Source: Cyclobacterium sp. SYSU L10401
Lineage (GTDB): Bacteria; Bacteroidota; Bacteroidia; Cytophagales; Cyclobacteriaceae
Reading direction: 5' to 3'
Assembly (NCBI RefSeq): GCF_010993705.1
Contig: NZ_WOFO01000001.1
Location: 896,132 to 960,131 of the forward strand
Length of the DNA: 64,000 nucleotides
Positions within the stretch are counted from its first letter, which is position 1, and every line of letters begins with the position of its first letter. The notes beneath the pieces are model-generated. The model saw only the letters and a list, made by a program, of their open reading frames with translations, was not told where the DNA came from and ran no database searches. The position numbers and the translations under genes are program-made. This document shows positions 54,720 to 56,095 of this stretch, piece by piece.

Positions 54720-54731
54720 TTTGCGTCTCAT
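54720..54731. repeat. 12-mer repeat TTTGCGTCTCAT upstream of the Fic gene
   Basis: One of four copies of TTTG(T/C)GTCTCA(T/C) that flank the Fic gene; this one lies 55 bases before its ATG. The others are at 55882-55893, 55912-55923 and 55952-55963. An upstream copy in the promoter region suits an operator. Confidence 0.6.
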
Positions 54732-54785
54732 ATCTTGGTAATTATAAGATGAAAAGCTATCTTGTAGTGCATAGATGAGATAAAA

Positions 54786-55877
54786 ATGAAACCTTATAAA
54801 CCCGAAGAACTTCCCTTGACCAATTTAGATTGGTCTTCTTTGGTTGATTTACTCAGTACTGCAAATCGGCAACTTACCCGATATGACGGCTTACTTCAAT
54901 CGATCATAAATCCTGAGGTATTGCTATCTCTGCTTCGGACACAAGAAGCGGTATTGTCTTCAAAAATAGAAGGTACTCAGGCGACATTAAAAGAAGTATT
55001 AGAGTACGAGGCAGATAAGGCACAGTCTTCTGAAAAACAAGGTGATATTAGAGAAATTATAAATTACCGAAAGGCACTCTTTACAGCCAAATCCAGATTA
55101 GAGGTGCTTCCTTTGTCTCTTAGATTGATTCGTGAGATGCATGCGGTATTGATGCAAGATGTCCGTGGCGAAAATAAAGCTCCTGGAGAATTCCGGAGAA
55201 TCCAAAATTGGATTGGAGCCCCTGGCAGCACGATTGAGACAGCACGATTTGTTCCCCCAACAGTCCAAGATATGCTCAATGGTTTGGGTAATTGGGAGAA
55301 GTACATCCACTTCGAAGAAAAAGACCCTCTGGTACAGTTGGCAATTATCCATGCCCAATTTGAAATACTACATCCATTTTTGGATGGAAATGGAAGGATT
55401 GGAAGGATTCTAATTCCTCTTTTTTTGTTTGATAAAAATATTATCCGGGAACCCGTATTTTATCTTTCAGATTATTTAGAGAATCATCGAAGGGATTATT
55501 ACGATGCGCTGAAAGATATCACAGATTCAGGAAGCTGGACTAATTGGATAAGATTTTTTCTTGGAGCGATTATTAGCCAATCTAAGAAGAATAACGATCA
55601 AATCCGGCAAATAGTGGCACTTTATGAGTCAATGAAGGAGAAAATTGTAATTGCAACCCATTCGCAATTTGCAGTAAATTGTCTTGACTTTATTTTCAAT
55701 CGCCCAGTATTCAACAGTGGGAGATTTTACGAAGAGTCAGGAGTTCCGAGAGCATCTGCTTCCAGGCTGCTTGTTGCTATGGAGGCAAATAATTTGATCA
55801 AATGCATTGAAAAAGGAGCGGGAAGGCGTCCCTCTTTATATGTTTTCGAACCTTTGCTGGAAATTGTCAACCAGTAG
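54786..55877 (+). CDS. Fic family protein with winged-helix C-terminus
   Basis: 363-residue Fic enzyme, expected to AMPylate (or de-AMPylate) target proteins with ATP. The N-terminal helical part carries the auto-inhibitory motif S58-S-K-I-E62-G63, the (S/T)xxxE(G/N) pattern of class II Fic proteins. The catalytic motif HPFLDGNGRIGR starts at His196. The flap region is PGEFRRIQNWIGAPGSTIE. Residues ~290-360 (FNSGRFYEESGVPRASASRL, LIKCIEKGAGRRPSLYVFEP) look like a winged helix. It is flanked by a four-copy 12-mer that may be its operator. Complete, with no antitoxin gene next to it, as expected when inhibition is built in. Confidence 0.92.
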   Translation: MKPYKPEELPLTNLDWSSLVDLLSTANRQLTRYDGLLQSIINPEVLLSLLRTQEAVLSSKIEGTQATLKEVLEYEADKAQSSEKQGDIREIINYRKALFTAKSRLEVLPLSLRLIREMHAVLMQDVRGENKAPGEFRRIQNWIGAPGSTIETARFVPPTVQDMLNGLGNWEKYIHFEEKDPLVQLAIIHAQFEILHPFLDGNGRIGRILIPLFLFDKNIIREPVFYLSDYLENHRRDYYDALKDITDSGSWTNWIRFFLGAIISQSKKNNDQIRQIVALYESMKEKIVIATHSQFAVNCLDFIFNRPVFNSGRFYEESGVPRASASRLLVAMEANNLIKCIEKGAGRRPSLYVFEPLLEIVNQ

Positions 55878-55881
55878 TGAT

Positions 55882-55963
55882 TTTGTGTCTCATCAAATAG
55901 CTATAAAGTATTTTGCGTCTCATATTTTCGCTTCTATGAGATGCTACAGCATTTGTGTCTCAC
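55882..55963. repeat. three 12-mer repeats downstream of the Fic gene
   Basis: TTTGTGTCTCAT (55882-55893), TTTGCGTCTCAT (55912-55923) and TTTGTGTCTCAC (55952-55963), spaced 30 and 40 bases apart. Together with the copy at 54720 they bracket the Fic gene. The remaining sequence to the tRNA terminator shows no gene. Confidence 0.6.
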
Positions 55964-56095
55964 GGATGAGTTACAAAAGAACGCATCTGATTTGCTAGAA
56001 AAAAGTCTGCTATCAATCAGACTTTTGAAACCAGAGCCGAAATTTCCGATTCCGCTCCGCTACATCAGAATAAACTTTCCCCCCAGCGTCTAAAA

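What the first reader, a model, noticed from the sequence alone, without database searches (positions are those of the whole stretch)
54720..55963. Fic gene bracketed by four copies of TTTG(T/C)GTCTCA(T/C)
One copy lies 55 bases upstream of the ATG and three lie just downstream, 30 and 40 bases apart. The Fic protein ends in a winged-helix-like domain, so an autoregulatory operator is plausible. Copies after the gene would be unusual for simple repression and may mark looping, or sites for a neighbouring gene lost by decay.
Basis: partly seen in the sequence, partly recalled or inferred. Interest (0 to 1): 0.55.

Follow-up and report, generated by a model that had tools for sequence, protein, structure and literature searches.

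The report
Fic toxin gene with operator array
A gene for a Fic enzyme, from a family known for anti-phage toxins, sits against an array of up to six inverted DNA half-sites that is probably the landing pad for the enzyme's own DNA-binding tail, and the same layout recurs with different letters in distant bacteria.

Summary
In detail: four exact 12-mers lie at 54720, 55882, 55912 and 55952, and only two others occur in the 5.9-Mb genome. They are the best-preserved members of two inverted-repeat arrays abutting a fic gene that encodes Fic_N, Fic and a C-terminal winged helix. In relatives the half-sites sit on a fixed grid: + 0, - 14, + 30, - 54, + 70, - 84, a 96-bp palindromic array. A grid test that uses no motif letters gave scores that no shuffle reached in 38 of 60 loci. 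With the grid frozen it did so in 20 of 45 newly fetched loci. The half-site letters drift (TTTGTGTCTCAT, TTTGTGTACGAT, TTTGTATAAAGT and others) while the geometry stays. In 36 loci measured the array lies within 35 bp of fic, upstream in 18 and downstream in 18. Best reading: a cooperative binding array for the Fic protein's own winged helix, keeping a SoFic-type AMPylating toxin off. Precedent: CccR represses itself through an inverted repeat. No binding was measured, the protein-DNA covariation is weak, and downstream arrays are not explained by simple repression. My nine literature searches found no description of the array.

The parts
54786..55877 (+). fic gene, 363 aa: Fic_N (21-100), Fic core with HPFLDGNGRIGR, inhibitory motif SSKIEG, winged helix about 296-361
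55882..55977 (.). downstream palindromic array, six half-sites on the 0/14/30/54/70/84 grid
   Evidence: best grid score in the whole window, 0.69; next unrelated place 0.46
55882..55893 (+). half-site A, TTTGTGTCTCAT
55896..55907 (-). half-site A', degenerate
55912..55923 (+). half-site B, TTTGCGTCTCAT
55936..55947 (-). half-site B', degenerate
55952..55963 (+). half-site C, TTTGTGTCTCAC
55966..55977 (-). half-site C', TTTGTAACTCAT when read on the - strand
54720..54786 (.). upstream array, truncated: half-sites B, B', C, C' only; runs into the fic start codon
   Evidence: the first palindrome, present in L037, is absent
54720..54731 (+). half-site B of the upstream array, TTTGCGTCTCAT
54744..54755 (-). 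half-site B' of the upstream array, degenerate
54761..54772 (+). half-site C of the upstream array, degenerate
54775..54786 (-). half-site C' of the upstream array, TTTTTATCTCAT when read on the - strand

Best explanation
The repeats are the cognate binding array of the Fic protein itself. Its C-terminal winged helix (recognition helix about 322-334) reads the 12-bp half-site. Several dimers are inferred to bind cooperatively to three palindromes (P1 and P3 with a 2-bp centre, P2 with a 12-bp centre). Where the array is upstream it reaches close to the start codon, so an occupied array should block transcription: negative autoregulation of an AMPylating toxin of the SoFic anti-phage type. Where fic adjoins type I restriction genes, as in some relatives, the same protein may also control them. 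Shown: the arrays, their geometry, their adjacency to fic, purifying selection on fic; the winged-helix fold is a confident model. Inferred: binding, dimer use, repression, anti-phage role.
For: Array tied to fic both ways: 38 of 60 loci gave grid scores that none of 60 shuffles reached; in 50 larger loci the score 0.55 was reached by 30 of 50 fic flanks and at 1 of 669,686 positions elsewhere; a search of 395 genomes with palindrome P2 gave 3 places, all at fic or its remnant. Replication with the frozen grid: 20 of 45 loci, and 7 of 80 windows at 0.55 or more against a mean of 0.085 (largest 3) for 200 random alternative grids. Half-sites agree within a locus and drift between loci, as expected for a protein read-out. 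Winged helix. The top residue-base pair by MI-APC is R327, in the recognition helix, with half-site position 11. Purifying selection: dN/dS 0.06 (window against L037). Precedent: CccR binds an inverted repeat in its own promoter and represses itself (PMC9755527, abstract and part of one section). Sofic proper has half-site arrays upstream: 2 of 3 loci beat 200 shuffles. Wild-type Sofic is toxic (PMC12249575), so tight repression makes sense.
Against: No binding or expression data. Half-site distances do not follow the C-terminal domain beyond the rest of the protein (partial Mantel 0.013, p 0.45); they follow the N-terminal and Fic part given the C-terminal domain (0.418, p 0.0002), which points to plain descent. 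R327 and base C10 change only once and twice on the tree, so their link is close to one event. 22 of 60 loci fail the fixed-grid test, 25 of 45 in the replication. Half of the arrays measured lie downstream of fic, where autorepression from a promoter is not obvious; in the 38 loci scanned with a locus-specific half-site no other cluster was listed away from fic. The window's upstream array lacks its first palindrome.
Confidence: 0.6

Rival explanations
1. Control array of a defence locus: the Fic protein acts like a controller protein of restriction-modification systems; the downstream array is the operator of a following restriction gene, lost in the window.
For: Arrays lie between fic and hsdM (L061/L130), fic and a type I R subunit (L097/L142), or between divergent fic and hsdR (L040, L041).
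Against: Most relatives show no restriction gene nearby: 12 of 50 loci do in a neighbour scan with seeds taken from these loci. The array hugs fic (median 2 bp after the stop) and not the next gene (median 201 bp). No hsd gene was recognised around the window's fic.
Confidence: 0.15
2. DNA as off-switch: the array holds the Fic toxin in an inactive oligomer; release from it, for instance on phage attack, activates it. Repression is secondary.
For: The array stays beside fic on either side, with at least 6 side changes on the best tree, which a promoter operator would not need. In CbFic2, DNA induces dimers, stimulates deAMPylation and stops auto-AMPylation (PMC10628234, part of the Discussion read).
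Against: CbFic2 was tested with random DNA; CccR's toxic and regulatory activities were reported independent. Arrays or pieces outlive fic in related genomes, which may be slow decay.
Confidence: 0.12
3. Ends of a mobile cassette: arrays are recombination or transposition sites, and the fic unit moves by them.
For: Direct repeats of local sequence bracket fic in 9 of 54 loci against 3 of 215 control ORFs; a Balneola relative shows one copy and no fic at the site. Both-sided arrays were seen in the window, L037, L038, L044 and L052.
Against: The bracketing repeats are copies of the surroundings, not the array; no recombinase was noticed in the unit (array plus fic only); most arrays scanned are one-sided; the winged helix already offers a reader for the array. 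Three of the 9 loci (L049-L051) are close relatives.
Confidence: 0.06
4. Chance or low-complexity repeats.
For: Shuffles reach the observed scores in 22 of 60 loci and 25 of 45.
Confidence: 0.01

Closest known systems
CccR of Yersinia pseudotuberculosis (PMC9755527; abstract and part of the regulator section read)
   Same: Fic domain plus C-terminal DNA-binding domain; binds inverted repeats in its own promoter and represses itself; AMPylating toxin.
   Different: One pair of 10-bp repeats with a 26-bp spacer, against a grid of up to six half-sites with 2- and 12-bp centres; CccR is a secreted effector; no array after the gene is mentioned in what I read.
SoFic / Sofic (PDB 3zcn, 3eqx; EcSofic, PMC12249575)
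   Same: Same full-length fold, Z 38.9, rmsd 2.4, 348 aligned residues; same domain order; Sofic is described as an anti-phage toxin.
   Different: 25-26% identity; below the NCBIfam SoFic cut-off (183 against 550 bits). PMC10628234 states that DNA binding by SoFic had not been shown. The Sofic upstream arrays seen here use other half-sites and spacing.
CbFic2 of Coxiella burnetii (PMC10628234; passages and part of the Discussion read)
   Same: Fic with winged helix that binds DNA, which changes its (de)AMPylation.
   Different: Studied with random DNA; no specific site was defined.
Controller (C) proteins of restriction-modification systems
   Same: Regulators with operator sites near restriction genes (recalled, and seen in the listing).
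   Different: C proteins have no enzyme domain (recalled); no restriction gene was recognised near the window's fic.

Membership tests
SoFic-type class II Fic proteins | Fic_N and Fic domains | tested here: met
   PF13784 90.1 bits, PF02661 74.2 bits
SoFic-type class II Fic proteins | Catalytic HPFx(D/E)GN(G/K)R motif and N-terminal inhibitory (S/T)xxxE(G/N) motif | tested here: met
   H196 to R204 (except 199) and S58, E62, G63 invariant in 49 sequences; the inhibitory motif's definition is recalled
SoFic-type class II Fic proteins | C-terminal winged helix | tested here: met
   models with mean pLDDT 93.8 and 95.0; MarR/ArsR-type regulators and SoFic's own domain (TM 0.82) among the matches, though none under E 0.001
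SoFic-type class II Fic proteins | Score over the NCBIfam SoFic equivalog cut-off (NF046030) | tested here: not met
   183.2 against 550 bits
SoFic-type class II Fic proteins | PADLOC SoFic model | tested here: inconclusive
   392 bits, but no cut-off is given for this library
SoFic-type class II Fic proteins | Anti-phage activity by AMPylation | not testable with these tools
   needs an experiment
CccR-like self-repressing Fic | Inverted repeats just upstream of or in the own promoter region | tested here: met
   the promoter itself was not mapped, and in half of the relatives measured the array is downstream
CccR-like self-repressing Fic | 10-bp repeats with a 26-bp spacer | tested here: not met
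   centres of 2 and 12 bp; 12 bp best in 34 of 40 loci when 8-14 were allowed
CccR-like self-repressing Fic | Binding and repression | not testable with these tools
   no wet data
Controller protein of a restriction-modification system | Restriction-modification genes in the same locus | tested here: not met
   none recognised among the neighbouring ORFs of L157; relatives with a PF02384 match within 10 kb: at least 11 of 50
Two-gene Fic toxin-antitoxin (FicT-FicA type) | Separate small antitoxin gene carrying the inhibitory helix | tested here: not met
   the inhibitory motif lies in the protein itself; the 153-aa ORF upstream has no Pfam match at E 0.001

The most novel reading that the evidence does not exclude
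The array is a DNA antitoxin carried in cis: a fixed-geometry, six-half-site scaffold, inherited as one unit with the gene on either side of it, that parks the Fic toxin in its dimeric, deAMPylating state. Each lineage has its own private half-site, so several units could coexist in one cell. Loss, modification or takeover of the chromosome during phage attack would free the toxin. The array would then be both operator and sensor.
Probability: 0.1. Interest if true: 0.9.

Novelty: new variant of a known kind. Interest (0 to 1): 0.6.

Why it matters
SoFic-type Fic toxins are listed among anti-phage systems, yet what keeps them off is open; one of the papers read states that DNA binding by SoFic had not been demonstrated. 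A DNA array that abuts such genes, with fixed spacing and lineage-specific letters, gives a concrete site to test, predicts self-repression across a wide set of these toxins, and offers a way to find the sites and their linked restriction genes in new genomes. If the array also controls enzyme activity, it would be a DNA-based antitoxin.

Tried and rejected
Recognition-code test: the partial Mantel test gave no support for the C-terminal domain beyond shared descent, and the R327/C10 link rests on one or two changes on the tree; I therefore do not claim a shown code. In the list of binary tests a residue outside the domain, G77, scores exactly as well as R327, and E102, L243 and H175 nearly so.

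A decayed gene after the window's downstream array: a 60-aa frame of L107 matches G008 at 86%, but in G003, G005, G006 and G008 the matching sequence is the flank of the tRNA-Leu gene and looks non-coding (judged by eye); its only Pfam hit is at E 0.15; dropped.

Array as structured RNA: not tested. All half-sites of a locus drift together, which fits protein reading better than pairing. Rfam at gathering thresholds found only the tRNA in the window.

Downstream small antitoxin like EcSofic's AS1 (47 aa, PMC12249575): apart from the frame above I did not look further.

A first loop in the Mantel script computed nothing; the reported values come from the second loop. The shuffles permute two-base blocks and are not strict dinucleotide shuffles; those are. 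The score limits 0.52 and 0.55 were chosen. Of the 70 loci, 59 were analysed with the window; 11 were left out (L083, L086, L092, L098, L099, L101-L106: truncated, partial, or in the case of L104 only 32% identical). Arrays were sought only within 260 bp before and 320 bp after the matched gene, so the closeness is measured inside that span. In one search I dropped L054, L070, L085 and L093 of the 40 loci (weak or odd register; L054 and L085 lie about 160-180 bp off). In some searches L057, L070, L081, L085 and L093 were dropped first and near-identical proteins collapsed (30 kept). In one search I scored 45 of the 80 fetched loci, hand-picked from the listing as near-full-length before scoring, not every such locus; several are near-copies (for example L205/L206, L240/L242, L219-L227), so 20 positives are not 20 independent cases, and four of them score only 0.42-0.46. 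In one search the window for all 80 loci was taken at the usual match position, which is not upstream of fic for the few loci whose match starts elsewhere. The genome search is insensitive: even the window's own arrays are too degenerate to match it.

Papers: PMC9755527 abstract and part 1 of one section; PMC12249575 abstract, Results section and passages; PMC10628234 passages and part 1 of the Discussion; the others only as search listings.

Full report
What is there. The fic gene (54786-55877) encodes 363 aa with Fic_N and Fic domains. The four 12-mers are real; the genome holds only two more, single ones. Downstream of fic they are members of a 96-bp array at 55882-55977, the best-scoring place for the grid in the whole window (0.69; next unrelated place 0.46). 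Upstream a truncated array (54720-54786) runs into the start codon. The relative L037, with a 95% identical Fic, still has the first palindrome upstream; the window lacks about 2.3 kb that L037's locus carries between the positions of 54703 and 54716, and with it that palindrome.

The family. A scan of genome contigs gave 70 related loci, from Bacteroidota, Balneolota, Pseudomonadota and many metagenome bins of other phyla; bin names may be wrong for some contigs. I analysed 60 loci: the window and 59 with near-full-length genes. Flanks often carry inverted arrays whose half-site is shared within a locus but differs between loci. In 38 loci scanned with locus-specific half-sites constant offsets showed up: + 0, - 14, + 30, - 54, + 70, - 84. 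That is a 96-bp array, symmetrical about its centre, of three palindromes: P1 and P3 with 2-bp centres, P2 with a 12-bp centre. Not every half-site is well preserved in every locus.

Tests. A score that compares only the six grid positions with each other, with no motif given, exceeded all 60 shuffles in 38 of 60 loci, where about 1 is expected. Letting the centre of P2 vary from 8 to 14 bp, 40 of 60 loci reached 0.52, and 12 bp was best in 34 of the 40. Outside fic flanks the score 0.55 was reached at 1 of 669,686 positions in 50 loci, against 30 of 50 fic flanks. Searching 395 genomes of the phylum with P2 of the TCTCAT type (3 mismatches allowed) found 3 places in 2 genomes: L168 lies against an intact fic; L169 too, but it is the locus L052 already in my set; L170 lies against the end of a decayed fic (86% identical to L169 over 170 bp across the fic end and array; protein match of 18 residues at E 0.002). 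With the grid frozen, I scored 45 of 80 newly fetched loci from viral contigs: 20 of 45 beat all 60 shuffles, 17 of them with only 33-42% identical Fic proteins. The true grid gave 0.55 or more in 7 of the 80 windows, 200 random alternative grids a mean of 0.085 and at most 3. The more distant Sofic proper has other half-site arrays upstream; 2 of 3 such loci beat 200 shuffles (the third was reached by 15 of 200). Of 8 other plasmid or phage relatives 4 were at 0 or 1 of 200 upstream, and none of these 11 downstream.

Position. In 36 loci (4 of 40 dropped) the array lies within 35 bp of fic: upstream in 18 (median 7.5 bp from the matched start, eight at 1 bp or less) and downstream in 18 (median 2 bp after the stop). 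The next ORF of 100 aa or more on the other side is at a median of 156 or 201 bp. The side changes at least 6 times on the best tree. In 7 of 9 upstream arrays that end at the start codon the last half-site has T at position 10 where the locus consensus has C; the seven form one group of Bacteroidota. So members of the array are not interchangeable.

The model of the protein (mean pLDDT 93.8) is closest to SoFic over its whole length (Z 38.9, rmsd 2.4, 348 residues). The C-terminal domain alone (pLDDT 95.0) is a winged helix that resembles MarR and ArsR type regulators and SoFic's own C-terminal domain, though no match falls under E 0.001. The strongest residue-base association after correction joins R327 of the recognition helix to half-site position 11; R327 and C at position 10 agree in 29 of 30 loci, but so does G77 outside the domain. 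This is weak evidence: the tree needs one change of R327 and two of C10, and in a distance test the half-sites follow the rest of the protein and not the C-terminal domain. Selection has kept the gene: dN/dS 0.06 against L037.

Context. PF02384 methylase matches lie within 10 kb of fic in at least 11 of 50 genomes, 10 of them strong, with about 1.2 expected. Pfam confirmed type I restriction subunits in 9 of 13 neighbour proteins sampled; the neighbour scan recognised hsd genes in 12 of 50 loci. PADLOC's SoFic model matches at 392 bits, so the window gene may well belong to a phage-defence family, though it fails the NCBIfam SoFic cut-off. Beside the window's fic lie a 153-aa ORF without Pfam match and a tRNA-Leu gene, and no recognised restriction gene.

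Reading. The simplest account is that the Fic protein binds its array cooperatively and represses its own gene, as CccR does with one inverted repeat. The unusual points are the size and constancy of the array, the turnover of its letters, and its freedom to lie behind the gene. The last point is not explained by repression of fic. It may serve the following gene (hsdM or hsdR in some relatives), or it may act on the protein: CbFic2 is switched towards deAMPylation by DNA. I rank self-repression first and keep the off-switch idea as the boldest reading not excluded.

Decay. In related Cyclobacterium genomes the fic gene is broken or gone while the downstream array survives: a C-terminal remnant in G004, the last codons in G008, a 52-bp piece of the array alone in G003. 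This may be slow decay and not function.

Literature. Nine searches of open-access papers found CccR, CbFic2 and Sofic but, in the listings and the parts read, no description of this array; subscription papers and preprints were not held.

Noticed in passing
L049, L050, L051 (L198, L199) against L197: At the 3' end of a gene in Balneola relatives, single-gene units (a RhuM gene in G073, the fic unit) stand between copies of about 88 bp of that gene's end; a relative (G501) has one copy and no fic, as an uninterrupted site.
   Followed up: partly
L042, L044, L045, L049-L052, L054, L070, flanks of fic: Direct repeats of at least 50 bp of local sequence bracket fic in 9 of 54 loci against 3 of 215 control ORFs in the same 20-kb loci (p 4e-5); in L045 the repeat is the end of an hsdS-like ORF. 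L053 has a shorter one at the end of hsdM.
   Followed up: partly
L181, L182 (less clear in L183), upstream of the Sofic gene: Sofic proper has its own ATGTTTA / TATGTCGA half-site arrays, with a 70-bp period, running up to the ATG.
   Followed up: partly
L120 (G072), around fic: Fic unit next to a DUF3427/ResIII/PLD protein and a RhuM gene, a likely defence island.
   Followed up: no
L107, 7138-9416 of its reverse complement: Segment absent from the window, holding a 344-aa frame that looks like a lipoprotein and a transposase-like piece (names by eye).
   Followed up: no
L172, L176 (G008, G003): The array or a piece of it persists beside tRNA-Leu after loss of fic.
   Followed up: partly
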